In this document: positions 22,446 through 29,786 of the stretch, piece by piece
How positions within the stretch are numbered: the first letter of the stretch is position 1
How the letters are laid out: the number at the start of each line of letters is the position of its first letter
Assembly: GCF_009805705.1 (NCBI RefSeq)
Contig: NZ_VSMB01000001.1
Location: forward strand, 62,001 to 126,000
DNA: 64,000 bases
Direction: 5' to 3'
Source of the DNA: Ruania rhizosphaerae
GTDB taxonomy: Bacteria; Actinomycetota; Actinomycetes; Actinomycetales; Beutenbergiaceae
Position numbers and translations under genes: made by a program
The notes under the pieces: generated by a model
Told to the model about the DNA's origin: nothing
Seen by the model: the letters and a program-made list of their open reading frames with translations, nothing else
Database searches by the model: none

Positions 22446-23909
22446 TCACTGCTGAAGTCCACGTGCCCGCCCGACGGCGGCCGCCCACCTCTGTCTGCGA
22501 GCGTCCGCCAGCGTGGGGTCGAGTCGGGGGGTGAAGATGTCGGGGCCGCCGGGACCGAAGGGCGTCGGCGGTGCATCTGTCCACAGCCCGGCCACGTCCC
22601 CGGCCAGGTGCGCGGCCCCCAGGGCGGACAGGTCACTCACCCTGGCCCGGTGTACCTGCCGCCCGGACAGGTCGGCCTGGTGCTGCATGAGCCAGTCGTT
22701 GGCGGACCCACCGCCGTCGGCGAGTACGGTCGCCACCGGTGTACCGGCCCTGGACACTGCCTCGAGCACATCCTCGATCTGCAGCACGACGGCGTCGACG
22801 GCCGCCCGGGCCACCTCCGCGCGCCCGGTGCCCAGCGTCATCCCGGTCAGTGCGGCCTGCGCCGCGGTGTCCCACCAGGGCGCCCCCAGGCCGGAGAAGG
22901 CCGGCACGAGATCGACCCCGCCATCCCCGACCCGGGCGGCCAGGTCGGCGAGCTCGGCCACACTCACCCCGAGCAGCTCAGCCGCCCACACCAGCGTGGC
23001 GCCCGAGGCGAGGATGTTGCCCTCCAGGGCGAGCTGCGCCGTCGGGCCTCGTTGCCAGGCCACCGTGCGCACGAGCCCTCCCGACGGCGGAGCCTCCTCG
23101 GCCAGTGCCATCACCGAGGAGCCGGTGCCGTAGGTGACCTTGACCTCGCCGGGGCGGCGGGCGCCGTGGCCGTACAGGCTGGCGTGGGAGTCGCCGAGCA
23201 CGGCGGTCAGGGGTGCGGTGACGCCGCCCCAGTCGGCGCTGGCGGTCGGCTCGTCGGAGGCCACCACGCGCGGCAGGGCTTCGGCCGGGATGGCGAAGCG
23301 GTCCAGCAATTCGGGTGACCAGTTGGCGGTGGCTAGATCCAGCAGCTGGGTGCGGCTGGCGTTGCCGGCCTCGATGCGGTGCTCACCGGTGATCCGGGTG
23401 ACGATCCAGGAGTCCACGGTGCCCAGGCAGATCTCGCCGGCGCGGGCGCGACGGCGATCGGAGTCCACCTGGTCCAGCAGCCAGGCGAGCTTCAGCGCGG
23501 AGAACATCGGGTCCACGGGGAGACCGGTGATCTCCTGGACCCGTGCGGCGTCGCCGGCCTCGAAGGCGTCGGCAGCGGCGCTGGTGCGCCGGTCCTGCCA
23601 GCCGAGCACGGGTCCGAGGGGTTCGCCGGTGCGACGGTCCCAGATCACTGCGGACTCGCGCTGGGTGCTCAGACCGACGCTCACGACGCCACCGCTGTTC
23701 TCGACGGCAGCGTCGGCAACGGCGCCACGGACGGCGGCGTGCACGCTGGCGAGCAGTTCCTCGGCATCCTGCTCCACCCATCCCGGCTGGGGGTGGGCCA
23801 TCGAGACGGGCACGGTCGCCCGCCCCACCACGCGGCCGCGTGAATCCACCACCAGCGCCTTCGTGGCGCTGGTGCCCTGGTCCACGCTGACCACGAGCGG
23901 TTCAGGCAC
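22446..23909 (-). CDS. FGGY-family carbohydrate kinase (candidate D-apulose or xylulose kinase)
   Basis: This 487 aa kinase has the N-terminal phosphate loop [16 protein letters not shown] and the domain-2 signature [10 protein letters not shown]. The ADP-binding block is [24 protein letters not shown] kinases phosphorylate ketoses or polyols. The GTG at 23909 overlaps the end of the transketolase gene by eight bases, so the operon is tightly coupled. Downstream is the isomerase. In an apiose-type pathway it would make D-apulose 4-phosphate. Sequence alone would also permit D-xylulose or glycerol-like substrates. Confidence 0.88.
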
Positions 23910-24861
23910 GGGCGATCGCCGCCTTCGCGGCTTCGGCGAGGTGCTCGGCATCGAGGCCGGCGCGGGTGAGCAGCACGTTCGTGCTCCCGGTCGGGGCGAA
24001 GTCGTGCAGGCCGAGGATCTCCACCGGCACCCGCTGCCCCGCGGGCAGGGTGGCGACCAGGCTCGCCACCGCGGCTCCGAGTCCACCCGACACGTTCGCC
24101 TCCTCGGCGGTGACGATCGCACGCGTCTGCGCGGCGGCTGCACGCACGGCGTCGTCATCGAACGGGGCGAGCCAGGAGGCATTCAGCACCCGCGAGGTGA
24201 CACCTTCGGCAGCCAGCACCTCGGCAGCCTGGAGCGCTCGGGAGACCATGGTGCCCGCGGCGATGATGGTGACATCTGCGCCGTCACGCACCTGCTGGAA
24301 CCGGCCCCGCTCGAGGGTGGACGGCTCCGGCAGGTCGGGCACCTTGTGCCGGCCCACCCGCATGAACGTCGGACGCGGCTCGGCGGCGAGCATCCGCACC
24401 GCTTCCCGGGTCTGTGCACGATCCGCGGGAAGCACGATGTCGAGTCCCGGCAGGGCGCGCAGCCAGGAGAGATCTTCCACCGAGTGGTGCGTGGGGCCGA
24501 GCTCGCCGTAGGCCATGCCGGGGCTCATCCCGCACAGGATCACCGGGTGCTGGGAGTAGGCCACGTCCGCCTTGATCTGCTCCAGGGACCGGCCGGTGAG
24601 GAAGGGGGCGGCGGCGCAAACGAACGGCACGAAGCCCATACTGGCAAGCCCGGCACCCACGCCCACCATGTTCTGCTCGGCGATCCCCACATTGATCAGC
24701 CGGTCCGGGAAGCGCTCGCGGAACTCCACCAGGTTGCTCGAGCCGACCGAGTCGTTGCACACGGCCACGATCCGGGGGTCGGCCGCAGCGAGCGCCATGA
24801 GCTCCTCGGCGAACGCCTTGCGGTTGTCGTGCACGGGGGCTGCGACGTCGACGGCGGTCAT
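23902..24861 (-). CDS. Transketolase, C-terminal subunit
   Basis: This 319 aa protein corresponds to the pyrimidine-binding and C-terminal domains of transketolase. It contains the cofactor glutamate in RLINVGIAEQNMVGVGAGLA, and GPTHHSVEDLSWLRALP. It cannot act without the N-terminal subunit encoded just upstream, whose stop overlaps its start in an ATGA junction. Split transketolases of this kind often belong to specialised sugar pathways and not to the core pentose phosphate pathway. The start at 24861 is chosen because of this coupling. Confidence 0.9.
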   Translation of the reverse strand: MTAVDVAAPVHDNRKAFAEELMALAAADPRIVAVCNDSVGSSNLVEFRERFPDRLINVGIAEQNMVGVGAGLASMGFVPFVCAAAPFLTGRSLEQIKADVAYSQHPVILCGMSPGMAYGELGPTHHSVEDLSWLRALPGLDIVLPADRAQTREAVRMLAAEPRPTFMRVGRHKVPDLPEPSTLERGRFQQVRDGADVTIIAAGTMVSRALQAAEVLAAEGVTSRVLNASWLAPFDDDAVRAAAAQTRAIVTAEEANVSGGLGAAVASLVATLPAGQRVPVEILGLHDFAPTGSTNVLLTRAGLDAEHLAEAAKAAIARA

Positions 24862-25769
24862 GCGAGTTCCAGAAGTGCCTGCTCGGCCTGCTCGCTCGTC
24901 GGCACCTTGTGGTGCCACTCGACCCGATCCTCCATGAAGCTGATTCCTTTGCCCTTGATCGTGTTGGCGATGACCGCCACCGGGCCACCCGTGACCGGCG
25001 GTGCATATGCCTCGGCCAGTGCCAGGTGGTCATGCCCGTCCACGGACCGCACCTCGCACCCGAAGGCGGCGAGCCGCGCGTCCAGCGGGTCGAGCCCGTT
25101 GGTGTCCTCGGTGCGTGCGCCCTGCTGCAGCCGGTTCCGGTCGACCACCAGGGTGAGGTTCTCGAGGCCGTAGTGCGCCGCGGCCATCAGGGCCTCCCAG
25201 TTACTGCCCTCTTGCAGTTCACCATCTCCGGCCACCACGAACATCCGGGCCGGTGAGCCGGCTAGGTGGGCGCCCACCGCCTGCCCGACGGCGACCGGCA
25301 GGCCATGCCCGAGCGGCCCCGTGTTCGTCTCGACCCCGGGGACCTTCACCCGGTTCGGGTGGCCGTTGAGCGCCGACCCCTCTGCCATGAAGGTGCCCAG
25401 TTCCTTCGGTGAGAAGTAGCCGCAGGAGGCAAGCGTCGCGTACAGCGCGGCAGCGCAGTGGCCCTTGCTGAGGATGAACCGGTCGCGGTTCTCGGGCAGG
25501 TCGGCCGGGTCGATCCGCAGCGTCTCGTAGAACAGGGTGGTGAGGATGTCGGTCACCGACATGTCCCCGCCCACGTGCCCCTGTCCCGCGGCCATGATCA
25601 TCTGCACCACGCGGCGTCGGATGGCCTGCGCTCGACCGGCCAGCAAGGTCGCCTTCTCCGCGGGCTCGGCCGCAGCGATGCGATCGCGCTCGGCGCGCCA
25701 GATCAGCACCTGCTCGAGGTCCGTCGTCAGCATCTCCGCATATCCATTCAATAGTGATCTTGTGTGCAT
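24858..25769 (-). CDS. Transketolase, N-terminal subunit
   Basis: This protein (303 aa from the first ATG) holds the thiamine diphosphate-binding domain. Key blocks are GHVGGDMSVTDILTTLFYE, LSKGHCAAALYA, GPLGHGLPVAVG and the TPP motif VVAGDGELQEGSNWEA. It is the first gene of the operon. The ATG at 25733 is an alternative start. Neither start has a good ribosome site, and a TTGACG hexamer at 25794-25799 suggests the promoter lies close to the first ATG. The pair should transfer a two-carbon ketol unit from a ketose phosphate to an aldose phosphate. Confidence 0.9.
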   Translation of the reverse strand: MHTRSLLNGYAEMLTTDLEQVLIWRAERDRIAAAEPAEKATLLAGRAQAIRRRVVQMIMAAGQGHVGGDMSVTDILTTLFYETLRIDPADLPENRDRFILSKGHCAAALYATLASCGYFSPKELGTFMAEGSALNGHPNRVKVPGVETNTGPLGHGLPVAVGQAVGAHLAGSPARMFVVAGDGELQEGSNWEALMAAAHYGLENLTLVVDRNRLQQGARTEDTNGLDPLDARLAAFGCEVRSVDGHDHLALAEAYAPPVTGGPVAVIANTIKGKGISFMEDRVEWHHKVPTSEQAEQALLELA

Positions 25770-25843
25770 TCACCATGGCACGGCTGCGGGTCGGCGTCAA
25801 GATCCTCGCCCCGTCCCGGGTCCCGACCACCCAGAAAATCGAA

Positions 25844-25860
25844 CGTCAATCTGGTTGACG
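25844..25860. promoter_or_regulatory. Inverted repeat between divergent operons, possible operator
   Basis: CGTCAA (25844-25849) and TTGACG (25855-25860) flank TCTGG. It lies between the transketolase operon and the divergent XRE-MNT gene. It could serve the SorC regulator or the XRE domain of the antitoxin. Confidence 0.4.
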
Positions 25861-25899
25861 ACGTGGAGGATTACCCAGGTCGCTTCATCGCAGATTTGC

Positions 25900-25905
25900 T
25901 ATACT
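25900..25905 (+). promoter_or_regulatory. -10 element TATACT of a leaderless promoter
   Basis: TATACT is followed by exactly six bases and then the GTG start at 25912. This spacing places the transcription start on the start codon, and no ribosome site is present. Confidence 0.6.
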
Positions 25906-25911
25906 GAATCG

Positions 25912-26367
25912 GTGAGCACCTTCGGTGAGTTCCTCCGAGCGCGGCGTGAGGCGGTCGGCTTGACCCAGCAACGACTCGCCGAGCTCAGCGGCGTCCAGCA
26001 GTCGACGATCGCGGCTATCGAGCGCGGTCGGCGCCAACCGTCTGACGAGGCCCGACGTCACCTGTCGAAGGCGCTCCTGGTACGGCCGCGGGAAATTCTT
26101 CTGAACCGACGTCGCGAGGTCGTTGCCGTGGCAAGTGAACACGGCTTGCAAGACGTCAAGGTCTTCGGGTCGATCGCTCGCGGTGACGACACTCCGTACT
26201 CGGATGTCGATCTCATGGCGACGTACCCCGCAGATTTCGACCTCGTGGACAAGGCCGAGCTGATCGAGGATCTCGAACGACTCTTGACCGTCCATGTCGA
26301 CGTCGTCTCGCGGACCTCCGGCGGTGCAGCGGCCGCCGAAGCCCGGCGCGAGGCCATCGCCCTGTGA
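25912..26367 (+). CDS. XRE helix-turn-helix fused to MNT nucleotidyltransferase (antitoxin)
   Basis: This 151 aa protein has an XRE helix-turn-helix (residues 4-58, LTQQRLAELSGVQQSTIAAI) followed by a minimal nucleotidyltransferase. The catalytic motif is GS at 86-87, ten residues, then D98-V-D100, with a third Asp at 130 (VHVDVV). MntA proteins of this type neutralise HepT by adding AMP to a Tyr next to the HEPN active site. The fused DNA-binding domain should let it repress its own promoter. The gene looks leaderless. Its TGA overlaps the GTG of the HEPN gene. Confidence 0.88.
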   Translation: MSTFGEFLRARREAVGLTQQRLAELSGVQQSTIAAIERGRRQPSDEARRHLSKALLVRPREILLNRRREVVAVASEHGLQDVKVFGSIARGDDTPYSDVDLMATYPADFDLVDKAELIEDLERLLTVHVDVVSRTSGGAAAAEARREAIAL

Positions 26368-26894
26368 CCGACACCGACGAGCAGCACCTCCGCGACGAGG
26401 CCGACTATGCGAGCGCCGACGAGAAGCGGATGTACCAGAAGGGTCGGGGATACCCGAAGAACGCCCGGCCGTTCTCACCGGAGCAGACGCGACGCCGACT
26501 GGGCGACCTGGTCGAGGTGGCTATCCGGTGCGGGCGGATCGTCGAGCGCGGCCATGCCGCATTCCTCGCCGACGACACCGACGGCGAACTTCTGAGGGCA
26601 GCGGCAGAGCGCTACCTCATCACAATCGGGAACATCGTCGAAAAGCTGCACAGCGACTACAAGGACACATTCCCCGACGTCCCCTGGCCGGCCGTCACCG
26701 CGATGCGAAATCTCATCGCACACCACTATGACAAGGTCGACCATGAGCAGGTCTGGCAATCGATCACGCGCCGGGTGCCGGAACTGATCGAGACGCTGCA
26801 CCTCGCCGATTCGGTCGACGACATCACCCTTCCCGCCAATCTCCAGCCACGAACACCCCGGCCAGCCGACCCGTTTCCCGGGCCTGACGCCTGA
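26364..26894 (+). CDS. HEPN-domain toxin (HepT/DUF86 type)
   Basis: This 176 aa protein contains the HEPN RNase motif RX4HXY as R115-NLIA-H120-H-Y122, with helices before it of the DUF86 type. HepT proteins are RNases kept inactive by AMP on the Tyr of this motif. The GTG start overlaps the antitoxin stop (GTGA), so the two are made together, antitoxin first. The N-terminal ~40 residues and the Pro-rich C-terminus are longer than in the shortest HepT proteins. Activity is inferred from motif and context. Confidence 0.85.
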   Translation: MTDTDEQHLRDEADYASADEKRMYQKGRGYPKNARPFSPEQTRRRLGDLVEVAIRCGRIVERGHAAFLADDTDGELLRAAAERYLITIGNIVEKLHSDYKDTFPDVPWPAVTAMRNLIAHHYDKVDHEQVWQSITRRVPELIETLHLADSVDDITLPANLQPRTPRPADPFPGPDA

Positions 26895-27014: not shown

Positions 27015-27020
27015 TAGCAT
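27015..27020 (+). promoter_or_regulatory. -10 element TAGCAT of a leaderless promoter
   Basis: TAGCAT is followed by GGCGCC and then the ATG at 27027. There is no ribosome site, so the nuclease mRNA probably starts at the ATG. Confidence 0.55.
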
Positions 27021-27026
27021 GGCGCC

Positions 27027-27980
27027 ATGCCGGAGGACTTCCTGATCGCCCGGAACCCCGAGGAAGGCAGCACGCTGCCGTATCTGCTGCGGATCCCGCT
27101 GGGCGAGCACGGGATCGTGCTCAAGACGCGCGAGGTCTGGCCGCGCACCGGGAAGGTCTACTGCCACCGCGCGGTCGGGTGGCCGAGCGAACCGGAGATC
27201 GTGGAGGCTGTTCCCGTGCGGTCGTGCCGGCGCCGGGGCACTGCGATCGATCTCGTCCTGGACCGCTCCCGCGAGAACCGCAGCCAGTTCGTGCTCACCC
27301 GAATCAAGGGTGGCCGGGAAGCGGTGTTCTGGCAGACCGCACGCACAGCGAAACAGGCGCGCCCCACCGTCGCCATCCCCACAGCCAGGGCGAGTGGCCT
27401 GGCCGGGCTGGAGATCGTGGTCGACAGCCACGAGCGATACGCCTGGAAGTTCAGCCACCAACAGGCCACCACGCGAAAGGCACCACTGGCCGCGGGCGAC
27501 TATGCGGTCGAGCTCGACGGCGCCGTCATCGCCTCCGTTGAACGAAAGAGCCTGAGCGACCTCGTCAGCACGCTCACCACTGGCAAGATGCGCTACCTCG
27601 CGGCCGACCTCAGCGACCTGCCGCGTGCCGCGATCGTGGTGGAGGACAGGTACTCCCAGGTCTTCGCGCTCGAGCACGTGCGGCCATCGGTCGTGGCCGA
27701 AGCCGTGGCCGAACACCACGCGCGGTTCCCCCAGGTCCCGATCGTGTTCTGCGAAACTCGGGCGCTTGCGCAGGAATGGACCTATCGGTTCCTCGCTGCC
27801 ACGTTGGCCGAGATCGCCGGGGAGAACATCGGCGAGGTGCGCACCAGCGCGCTCGCGAGCGCCGCCGCACCGACTCCGGCGGCCATCCGGTCGTGGGCGC
27901 TCGAGGCTGGTTACACGGTCTCGACCCGCGGTCGCATTCCTGCCGAGGTGCGGGCCGCGTTCGACCGCCGCCACGAGTAG
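27027..27980 (+). CDS. ERCC4-type nuclease with C-terminal Lsr2-like DNA-binding domain
   Basis: This 317 aa protein has three parts. Residues 1-110 are an unassigned beta-rich domain. Residues ~125-265 are an ERCC4/XPF nuclease: D133 in VVDSHER, GDY at 157-159 and the metal-binding core V-ERK at 171-174 with D178. Residues ~285-313 match the Lsr2 C-terminal domain (IRSWALEAGYTVSTRGRIP), including the RGR tripeptide (301-303) that Lsr2 inserts into the AT-rich minor groove. The expected enzyme is a nuclease aimed at AT-rich or branched DNA. It is leaderless and sits next to a HEPN/MNT module. Confidence 0.85.
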   Translation: MPEDFLIARNPEEGSTLPYLLRIPLGEHGIVLKTREVWPRTGKVYCHRAVGWPSEPEIVEAVPVRSCRRRGTAIDLVLDRSRENRSQFVLTRIKGGREAVFWQTARTAKQARPTVAIPTARASGLAGLEIVVDSHERYAWKFSHQQATTRKAPLAAGDYAVELDGAVIASVERKSLSDLVSTLTTGKMRYLAADLSDLPRAAIVVEDRYSQVFALEHVRPSVVAEAVAEHHARFPQVPIVFCETRALAQEWTYRFLAATLAEIAGENIGEVRTSALASAAAPTPAAIRSWALEAGYTVSTRGRIPAEVRAAFDRRHE

Positions 27981-28103
27981 GGCGCGCCGGCACGGGGTCC
28001 AACAGTTCCGCAATGGCGGAGCCCGACGGCGCCTCACGCCTCACGCCTCGCTGGTCACCTTCGGTAAGAGACGCCGTCGGGCCGAACGCAGCCGAGCAGA
28101 ACC

Positions 28104-29786
28104 TCATCCGCGCAACTCGAGGTACCTCTCGATCAGCGCCTTCGTCGACGCGTCCTGGTTCGCGAGCGCCTCAGCCTCCCCCGCCACGGCGGGAGCGAGC
28201 TCGGTGGCGAGTTGCTTGCCCAGCTCCACGCCCCACTGGTCGAAGGAGTCGATACCCCAGACCACGCCTTGGACGAAGGTGATGTGCTCGTACAGGGCGA
28301 TCAGCTGCCCGAGAACGGATGGAGTCAGCGCGGGGGCGAGGATCGACGTCGTCGGGCGGTTCCCCTCGAACACCCGGGCCGGGACGATGGCCTCGGGTGT
28401 CCCCTCGGCCCGCACCTCCTCGGCTGATTTGCCGAACGCGAGCGCCTTGGTCTGGGCGAAGAAGTTGGCGAGGAACAGACCATGAACATCGGTCTCCCCG
28501 TCCTTCAACGGGTGCGCCGGCGAAGCGACCGCGATGAAGTCGGCCGGGATCAGGCGGGTGCCCTGGTGGATCAGCTGGTAGAAGGCGTGCTGGCCGTTGG
28601 TGCCGGGCTCACCCCAGAAGATCTCCCCGGTGTCGGTGGTCACGGGCGTGCCGTCCCAGCGCACGCTCTTGCCGTTGGACTCCATCGTGAGTTGTTGCAG
28701 GTAGGCGGCGAAGCGGTGCAAATGCTGGGCATAGGGCAGCACCGCGTGGCTCTCCGCGCCCAGGAAGTTGACGTACCAGACGTTCAGCAGGCCCATCAGG
28801 ACCGGCACATTCTGGGCCAGCGGCGTGGTCCGGAAGTGCTCGTCCACCGCGTGGAATCCGGCGAGGAACTCGGCGAAGCGCTCCGGGCCGATCGCGATCG
28901 CGAGGGAGGTACCGATGGCCGAGTCCACCGAATAGCGCCCGCCGACCCAGTCCCAGAAGCCGAAGGCGTTCTCCGGGTCGATGCCGAACGCGGCCACCTT
29001 GTCCAGGGCGGTGGAGACGGCCACGAAGTGCGCGGACACCGCAGCGGTGCGTGCGTCGTCGACATCCTCGATCGCGCCGGCCGCGATCAGTTCCTTCCAG
29101 AGCCACTCCCGCGCCAGGCGGGCATTGGTCAGGGTCTCCAGGGTGCCGAACGTCTTGGAGGCGACGATGAACAGCGTCGTCTCCGGGTCCAGGCCCTGGG
29201 TGGTCTCGGCCACGTCGGTGGGGTCGATGTTGGAGACGAAGCGCACTTCGAGGCCGTCCGCCACGTACGGCTGCAGCGCTTCATACGCCATCACCGGCCC
29301 GAGGTCGGATCCACCGATGCCGATGTTCACCACCGTGCGCACCGGCTTGCCCGTCACACCTGTCCACTCCCCGCTGCGCACCTTCCCGGCGAAGTCGTAC
29401 ACCTTGGCCAGCACGGCGTGCACGTCGGCGTCGACGTCCTGCCCGTCGACGACCAGCGGCGGCTGCATACCGGCGGGCCGGCGAAGCGCGGTGTGCAGCA
29501 CGGCGCGATCCTCGGTGACGTTGATGTGATCACCGCGGAACATCGCCTCGATCCGGTCCGGCAGGCGCACATCCTCGGCCAGTTGCAGCAGCAGGTCCCG
29601 GGTCTCGTCCGTGATCAGGTTCTTCGACAGATCCACGTGCAGGTCGGCCGCCTGGTGGGTGAACCGGTCCGCTCTCCCGGGATCGTCGGCGAACCACCCT
29701 CGCAGGTTCGGTTCGAGCACACGGCAGTGAGCCATGAGATCGGCCCAGCTGGTGGTGCGAGTGGCGTCGATCGGCGCGTGGGTCAC
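28104..29786 (-). CDS. pgi: Glucose-6-phosphate isomerase
   Basis: This 560 aa enzyme interconverts glucose 6-phosphate and fructose 6-phosphate. Family signatures are present: [49 protein letters not shown] and, near the end, [17 protein letters not shown]. Length matches the long bacterial form. The GTG at 29786 is preceded by AGGAGAG, so I reject a start 34 codons upstream. It stands alone, with no sugar operon partner, as a housekeeping gene would. Confidence 0.97.

What the first reader, a model, noticed from the sequence alone, without database searches (positions are those of the whole stretch)
27027..27980. ERCC4/XPF-type nuclease fused to an Lsr2 minor-groove domain
The protein has the ERCC4 core (D133, GDY, ERK, D178) and a C-terminal Lsr2-like domain with an intact RGR. 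Lsr2 recognises AT-rich foreign DNA in actinobacteria. A nuclease with this reader could cut AT-rich invaders, a kind of xenogeneic nuclease. A new N-terminal domain of ~110 residues is also present. It sits next to a HEPN/MNT unit.
Basis: partly seen in the sequence, partly recalled or inferred. Interest (0 to 1): 0.75.

Follow-up and report, generated by a model that had tools for sequence, protein, structure and literature searches.

The report
Lone actinobacterial XPF-type nuclease with Lsr2 tail
The gene encodes a likely DNA-cutting enzyme of the XPF/Hef type with an Lsr2-type DNA-binding tail and a front part predicted to fold like a DNA-end-repair domain; it belongs to a patchy, apparently undescribed actinobacterial family that looks more like a solo DNA-processing enzyme than a dedicated killer of invading DNA.

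Summary
Window 27027-27980 (+) encodes 317 aa: an N-terminal domain (1-115), an ERCC4/XPF nuclease core (132-255, Pfam 1e-11, catalytic residues intact) and an Lsr2 DNA-binding domain (280-313, Pfam 1.3e-13, RGR). New here: (1) the five best PDB fold matches of the predicted N-domain are all LigD 3'-phosphoesterase (NHEJ) structures; sequence comparison gives no support and the phosphoesterase motif is missing. (2) The family core is N-domain plus nuclease. Of 30 carriers from other classes, 2 have Lsr2, 22 end after the nuclease, 5 carry another tail, 1 is frameshifted. (3) It looks like a solo gene: no strand bias or recurrent family among neighbours, and a -10-like element at the leaderless position in 56 of 83 copies. 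(4) It is patchy (27/394 class, 36/396 phylum genomes), sometimes broken, sometimes on plasmids. The HEPN/MNT neighbour is incidental. 'Xenogeneic nuclease' is possible but unsupported. I favour an accessory branched-DNA or DNA-end-processing nuclease tethered by Lsr2, compare published Ku-Lsr2 phage fusions. My searches found no paper on this domain pair. Function is untested.

The parts
27027..27980 (+). ERCC4-Lsr2 protein gene, 317 aa
   Evidence: homologues at 81-96% identity in G021 and G004
27027..27371 (+). N-terminal all-beta domain (residues 1-115), predicted LigD 3'-phosphoesterase-like fold; invariant W38 P39 W52 G71 R80 R85 F101 W102 P113
   Evidence: AlphaFold pLDDT 88.8, pTM 0.82; Foldseek top five PDB hits all LigD PE; invariance in 117 of 117 rows; no sequence-level support
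27420..27791 (+). ERCC4/XPF nuclease core (residues 132-255)
   Evidence: Pfam PF02732 1e-11; Foldseek to Hef 1j24 E 7.2e-8
27423..27548 (+). catalytic motif span: D133, E136, GDY157-159, ERK172-174
   Evidence: invariant in 117 of 117 rows
27759..27851 (+). long helix 245-275 at the end of the nuclease part, leading into the linker
   Evidence: AlphaFold/DSSP
27864..27965 (+). Lsr2 C-terminal DNA-binding domain (residues 280-313)
   Evidence: Pfam PF23359 1.3e-13; Lsr2 structures matched by sequence
27927..27935 (+). RGR motif (R301 G302 R303)
   Evidence: of 84 proteins, window included, 67 have RGR and 82 basic-G(G)-basic
27015..27020 (+). TAGCAT, -10-like hexamer placed for a leaderless transcript starting at the ATG
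   Evidence: [TC]A...T starting at -13/-12 in 56 of 83 copies, window included; 2 of 83 at each of two other four-position stretches
25537..26894 (+). ORFs of an XRE-MNT and HepT (HEPN) pair: neighbour, judged NOT part of the system
   Evidence: missing at the syntenic site of G005; of loci L001-L117, MNT hits only in L001, L002, L096 and a partial, tkt-side hit in L010

Best explanation
It is a stand-alone, accessory DNA-processing nuclease of an undescribed actinobacterial family. Shown: an N-terminal domain without Pfam match, an XPF/Hef-type nuclease core with intact catalytic residues, and, in this branch, a C-terminal Lsr2 DNA-binding domain. Predicted: the N-terminal domain has the fold of the LigD 3'-phosphoesterase but not its catalytic motif. 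Inferred: it acts alone or as a homodimer (Hef's dimer is recalled). The N-domain would help recognise a DNA end or junction, the ERCC4 core would nick flapped, branched or blocked DNA, and the Lsr2 tail would be a general DNA tether with AT preference rather than a self/non-self switch, because relatives do without it or use another tail. The most likely task is optional DNA repair or recombination, for instance trimming ends during end joining.
For: Catalytic motif invariant in 117 of 117. Closest solved folds for the core are Hef, XPF and Mus81. N-domain: the top five Foldseek hits are LigD PE (3p43, 3n9d, 3n9b_B, 3n9b_A, 3p4h; prob 0.99-1.00, TMq 0.55-0.62), the next has prob 0.57. Lsr2 is dispensable in the family: of 30 other-class carriers 22 stop after ERCC4, 5 have a different tail, 2 have Lsr2, 1 is frameshifted. 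Solo setting: nearest gene on the same strand in 46 of 87 on each side; -10-like hexamer at -13/-12 in 56 of 83. No Pfam family in more than 3 of 129 nearest genes, no PADLOC family in more than 1 of 129. Gene tree clusters by order: 14 label changes vs 34.6 in shuffles. Independent precedent: mycobacteriophage Ku proteins end in the Lsr2 DNA-binding domain with RGR (PMC8612146, passages).
Against: Profile-profile comparison of the N-domain with LigD PE is at noise level (prob 0.2; score 10.4 vs block-shuffled mean 12.1), and the PE motif His/Asp have no invariant counterpart. No LexA or PafBC site (motifs recalled) is conserved upstream (1 of 81; 1 and 2 of 81). The Ku link is weak: 26 of 27 carriers vs 267 of 367 non-carriers in the class sample (Fisher p 0.005, not corrected for phylogeny or genome size), but 9 of 10 vs 35 of 49 in the order sample, 9 of 9 vs 15 of 15 and 3 of 4 vs 37 of 57 in two other classes, and 4 of 30 other-class carriers lack Ku. 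Patchiness, broken copies and plasmid carriage also suit a defence or mobile-element role, and the window's neighbouring MNT matches a PADLOC candidate-defence model, PDC-S09, at 8e-21.
Confidence: 0.42

Rival explanations
1. Xenogeneic nuclease: the Lsr2 domain brings the ERCC4 core to AT-rich incoming DNA, which is then cut.
For: Lsr2-like proteins prefer AT-rich DNA (passages of PMC7002338). The Lsr2 domain is kept in all 75 members of A2 (rows were chosen as intact relatives of the window protein) and a basic-G(G)-basic motif in 82 of 84. Patchy presence and broken copies fit a defence gene. The MNT next door in the window matches PADLOC candidate PDC-S09.
Against: Lsr2 is not part of the family core. 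No defence family recurs among the nearest genes. No conserved partner that could protect the host's own AT-rich DNA was found. PADLOC has no hit for the protein.
Confidence: 0.22
2. Mobile-element nuclease: the gene serves plasmids or transposons (resolution, replication or competition) and has been captured by chromosomes.
For: 23 of 72,556 plasmid records carry it, all from Mycobacterium, Rhodococcus, Streptomyces, Pseudonocardia or Mycolicibacterium. One copy lies beside TnsA, Mu-type transposase, ATPase and TniQ genes; others lie near recombinase, transposase or IS genes.
Against: 0 of 50,697 phage records. The nearest genes of 71 loci (64 of them genome-contig loci) are mostly ordinary enzymes (draft contigs cannot be assigned to chromosome or plasmid). 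Six of the seven plasmid copies form one clade in the quick tree and are not spread through it. Window gene GC is 69.3% vs 68.0% for the window.
Confidence: 0.14
3. Regulator or structural protein: catalysis is vestigial and the protein acts as a DNA-bridging factor.
For: Two DNA-binding-like parts flank the core; annotation calls some members Lsr2.
Against: Catalytic residues are invariant in 117 of 117 rows.
Confidence: 0.07
4. Operon partner of the HEPN/MNT toxin-antitoxin pair next door.
For: Same strand and 132 bp apart in the window; an HTH plus NTase-like pair also sits directly upstream in a Nocardioides group (NTase by eye, no Pfam match).
Against: The pair is missing from the syntenic G005 locus and in pieces in G004. 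The gene has its own -10-like hexamer. Six of the seven Nocardioides-group loci share one locus.
Confidence: 0.04

Closest known systems
Hef / XPF / MUS81 nuclease family (ERCC4 domain)
   Same: Nuclease fold and D...E, GDY, ERK motif; Hef 1j24 is the best structural hit.
   Different: No helicase part and no HhH domain found by Pfam; carries an N-terminal beta domain and an Lsr2 tail instead.
LigD 3'-phosphoesterase (PE) domain of bacterial NHEJ
   Same: Predicted fold of residues 1-115.
   Different: No detectable sequence similarity; PE motif His/Asp absent; fused to a nuclease, not to a ligase.
Lsr2 xenogeneic silencer
   Same: C-terminal DNA-binding domain with RGR.
   Different: No match to an Lsr2 N-terminal part; fused to a nuclease; domain absent in relatives.
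Ku-Lsr2 fusions of mycobacteriophages Omega and Corndog (PMC8612146, passages seen)
   Same: A DNA-end protein extended by the Lsr2 DNA-binding domain with RGR.
   Different: Ku, not a nuclease; phage-borne, whereas no phage record matched the present protein.

Membership tests
XPF/MUS81/Hef nucleases | ERCC4 nuclease fold with GDY and ERK motif | tested here: met
XPF/MUS81/Hef nucleases | ERKx3D aspartate (D178 here; motif recalled) | tested here: met
   met in the window and in the 75 rows of A2; not kept in 97% of the 117-row set
XPF/MUS81/Hef nucleases | C-terminal tandem HhH domain (recalled) | tested here: not met
   no HhH match in P0001 or in the 75 members at E 0.1; the Lsr2 domain occupies the place
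XPF/MUS81/Hef nucleases | dimeric, structure-selective cleavage (recalled) | not testable with these tools
   needs protein
LigD phosphoesterase | PE beta-barrel fold | tested here: inconclusive
   Foldseek top five all PE, prob 0.99-1.00, but E 0.016-0.13, TMq 0.55-0.62, rmsd 4.5-5.2 A, on a predicted model: suggestive, no proof of common descent
LigD phosphoesterase | sequence-profile similarity | tested here: not met
LigD phosphoesterase | H...H-x-D-x-R motif (invariant H3, H9, D11, R13 of A4; catalytic role recalled) | tested here: not met
   A4 vs residues kept in 97% or more of N-domains (no His or Asp among them)
Lsr2 family | C-terminal DNA-binding domain with RGR | tested here: met
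Lsr2 family | N-terminal oligomerisation domain | tested here: not met
   only PF23359 matched; residues 1-115 are predicted as another fold
Known anti-phage defence systems (PADLOC 2.0.0) | profile match of the protein | tested here: not met
   no hit at E 10
Known anti-phage defence systems (PADLOC 2.0.0) | defence neighbourhood | tested here: inconclusive
   31 PADLOC families hit at least one of 129 neighbours, none shown hits more than 1; no matched control set was run

The most novel reading that the evidence does not exclude
A single-polypeptide end-processing factor of bacterial double-strand-break repair: a catalytically dead LigD-PE-like domain finds DNA ends, an XPF nuclease trims flaps, and an interchangeable tail (Lsr2, another C-terminal domain, or none) anchors it to DNA. 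That would give bacteria an XPF/Artemis-like step in end joining and would explain why Lsr2 domains turn up on NHEJ proteins.
Probability: 0.22. Interest if true: 0.75.

Novelty: new variant of a known kind. Interest (0 to 1): 0.5.

Why it matters
XPF-type nucleases are best known from eukaryotes and archaea (recalled). A family with an intact core, a LigD-PE-like predicted fold and differing C-terminal tails across Actinomycetota gives a small, testable bacterial example. Together with the published Ku-Lsr2 fusions it suggests that the Lsr2 domain is a reusable DNA tether, not only a mark of xenogeneic silencing.

Tried and rejected
HEPN/MNT linkage: rejected, because the pair is missing at the G005 syntenic locus and found in no other locus of L003-L117 as a pair. 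Conserved operon partner: none found among ORFs within 6 kb of 87 loci. The largest clusters (14 loci at most) are mixed up- and downstream; the only tight upstream pair (HTH plus NTase-like) belongs to a Nocardioides group. DNA-damage regulation: LexA-like site in 1 of 81, PafBC-like in 1 and 2 of 81 by two patterns, about background. Sequence homology of the N-domain to LigD PE: no support. Ku dependence: significant in one sample only, and confounded. Viral-contig scan: 80 of 144 loci kept, 24-44% identity, mostly over the ERCC4 core, none covering the whole protein; not pursued. Viral fold library: top hits are ERCC4 proteins of archaeal and eukaryotic viruses, matching about 150-220 columns. 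Literature: 0 papers hold ERCC4 with Lsr2, 'ERCC4 domain' with actinobacteria, XPF with nuclease, actinobacteria and Lsr2, LigD with phosphoesterase and ERCC4. Lsr2 with XPF gives 2 papers on breast cancer and senolytics, listing only. Five broader searches were seen as listings; only passages of PMC8612146 and PMC7002338 were read. Most subscription papers and all preprints are not held.

Limits of my controls and rows dropped. The -10 and Shine-Dalgarno control (1053 other genes: 116 and 168) used the first start codon of script-called ORFs, so its rates are too low; the within-copy control (2 of 83 at other positions) is the fairer one. Of 87 loci, L050, L051, L101 and L110 were left out of trees and motif counts as broken or mis-called, and L091 from the upstream counts (start cut off by the contig end). 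A2 also omits L042 and L091. L260, L263 and L284 (partial or broken) and L283 and L286 (no ORF hit) were left out of the 117-row alignment. In the neighbour test 16 of 87 loci were dropped as duplicates of a shared locus or broken, and genes over 1000 aa, over 3 kb away or with a length not divisible by three were skipped, leaving 129. Gene calls come from a simple GC-by-codon-position script, so single neighbours may be wrong. One search's tree used only the first 80 residues of the window protein through my parsing slip; one search repeats it with all 317. The six-plasmid clade is read, since one search printed no drawing. The Ku counts by sample were tallied by hand from the listed rows.

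Full report
What is there. ORF 27027-27980 (+) encodes 317 aa. Pfam gives ERCC4 at 132-255 and Lsr2_DNA-bd at 280-313, both above cut-off, and nothing for 1-115. NCBIfam gives a Hef match far below its cut-off (28 of 610 bits) over the nuclease and a weak DNA polymerase III delta' match. By sequence, the PDB relatives are the Lsr2 C-terminal domain and the Hef nuclease, and with a profile also XPF.

How real is the architecture. The genome-contig scan found 357 encoding stretches, of which 80 were kept; the titles of 79 name actinobacteria and one an 'Acidobacteria' MAG. Of 75 aligned intact members (the window and 74 of the 80 loci), all 75 match both Pfam families. In a 117-row alignment that includes distant members, D133, E136, G157, D158, Y159, E172, R173 and K174 are invariant. 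Of 84 proteins the motif is exactly RGR in 67 and basic-G(G)-basic in 82.

The N-terminal domain. AlphaFold on the full alignment gives mean pLDDT 88.8 but pTM 0.54, so the domains are probably flexible relative to one another. The domain alone gives pLDDT 88.8, pTM 0.82 and nine strands. Foldseek against the PDB: ranks 1-5 are LigD 3'-phosphoesterase domains, with E 0.016 to 0.13, probability 0.99-1.00 and TMq 0.55-0.62; rank 6 has probability 0.57. This is fold-level evidence on a model, and no E-value is below 0.001. Profile comparison with 22 LigD PE domains is at noise. The invariant PE residues H3, H9, D11 and R13 have no His or Asp counterpart among the nearly invariant N-domain residues. 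If it is a PE relative, it has probably lost that chemistry (inference).

Domain change at the C-terminus. The phylum sample (36 of 396 genomes) includes 30 carriers outside the window's class. By their translations, 2 carry Lsr2 (G675, G785), 22 end shortly after the nuclease, 5 (G556, G683, G615, G723, G763) have a different tail of about 90 residues, and G548 is frameshifted. Of three members with the different tail that were scanned, one has weak hits there to winged-helix models (E 0.07-0.2), so 'winged helix' is a guess. Within the window's class, at least G066, G069, G091 and G113 also end after the nuclease. The core is therefore N-domain plus ERCC4.

Distribution. Of 59 genomes of the window's order, 8 have an apparently intact copy (G000, G004, G008, G021, G036, G038, G040, G054). 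G010 is truncated with a stop in frame, G005 is frameshifted and G023 has fragments; the other hits of that call cover only the Lsr2 end. Class sample: 27 of 394, of which G010, G184, G189 and G209 are split or truncated and G213 has an internal deletion. Two other classes: 9 of 24 and 4 of 61. Plasmids: 23 of 72,556 records, 22 over at least 80% of the query. Phages: 0 of 50,697. The gene tree clusters by order more than chance (14 changes, shuffled mean 34.6; 19 of 84 rows had no order). In the earlier quick tree six of seven plasmid copies form one clade. This is the pattern of an old, dispensable gene with losses and some transfer (inference).

Local context. In G005 the window's 25,904-26,826 (most of the HEPN/MNT stretch) is missing while both sides align. 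In G004 the pair is present but in pieces. About 28 kb separate the gene from pgi in G004 and G005 but are missing in the window genome; these genes look like sugar metabolism by eye, with no family search. Across 87 loci the nearest upstream and downstream genes are on the same strand in 46 of 87 each. Of 129 nearest genes, no Pfam family recurs in more than 3. PADLOC families hit single neighbours (31 families in all; the 25 shown hit one gene each), and the window's own MNT matches PADLOC candidate PDC-S09; no control set was run. One neighbour is a LigD primase-polymerase gene, a single case. A -10-like hexamer at -13/-12 from the start codon occurs in 56 of 83 copies; other gene starts in the same loci show it in 116 of 1053, but those starts are script-called and often wrong, so the better control is other positions in the same 83 upstreams (2 of 83 at each of two stretches). 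A Shine-Dalgarno-like site is present in 3 of 83. The gene is therefore probably read as its own leaderless message; in the window the hexamer is TAGCAT at 27015-27020.

What it does. An active nuclease is very likely (invariant catalytic set). For its task I weighed repair/end processing, xenogeneic defence and mobile-element service. For the first: the LigD-PE-like predicted fold, the Hef/XPF core, the solo setting, and the published Ku-Lsr2 fusions. That paper reports that Ku proteins of phages Omega and Corndog end in an Lsr2 domain with RGR and cites work in which they enable circularisation of incoming phage genomes (PMC8612146, passages). Against it: no SOS or PafBC site and a weak Ku association. 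Ku is present in 26 of 27 carriers and 267 of 367 non-carriers in the class sample, 9 of 10 and 35 of 49 in the order sample, 9 of 9 and 15 of 15, and 3 of 4 and 37 of 57, in two further classes, and in 26 of 30 other-class carriers. For defence: patchiness, decay and the AT preference of Lsr2-like proteins (PMC7002338, passages). Against it: the expendable Lsr2 tail and the lack of a recurrent defence neighbour. I commit to accessory DNA processing at 0.42.

Novelty. In the plasmid records the product names are 'ERCC4 domain-containing protein' or 'histone-like nucleoid-structuring protein Lsr2'. No NCBIfam model reaches its cut-off, and the paper searches found no description. It is a new variant of a known kind of nuclease.

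Noticed in passing
window 25537-26894: An XRE-type HTH fused to an MNT nucleotidyltransferase (also a match to PADLOC candidate PDC-S09), followed by a HepT-like HEPN gene, in a stretch of lower GC (about 62-66%, vs 68% for the window); missing at the same site in G005 and in pieces in G004.
   Followed up: partly
L085, L093, L098, L100, L105, L108, L115, directly upstream of the ERCC4-Lsr2 gene: A conserved pair in a Nocardioides group: an HTH_17 protein and an NTase-like protein (by eye; no Pfam match), in L100 and L108 ending 2 bp before the nuclease gene.
   Followed up: partly
L031:674-5620: A TnsA-like / Mu-type transposase / ATPase / TniQ gene set stands directly beside the nuclease gene on Rhodococcus plasmid pDK3.
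   Followed up: no
window 27980-28104: The nuclease gene abuts pgi here, while G004 and G005 have about 28 kb between the two.
   Followed up: partly
L264, L265, L266, L267, L268: Distant members carry a different C-terminal tail of about 90 residues, perhaps a winged helix, where others have Lsr2 or nothing.
   Followed up: partly
window 23902-25769: What looks by eye like a transketolase encoded as two adjacent genes; no family search was made.
   Followed up: no
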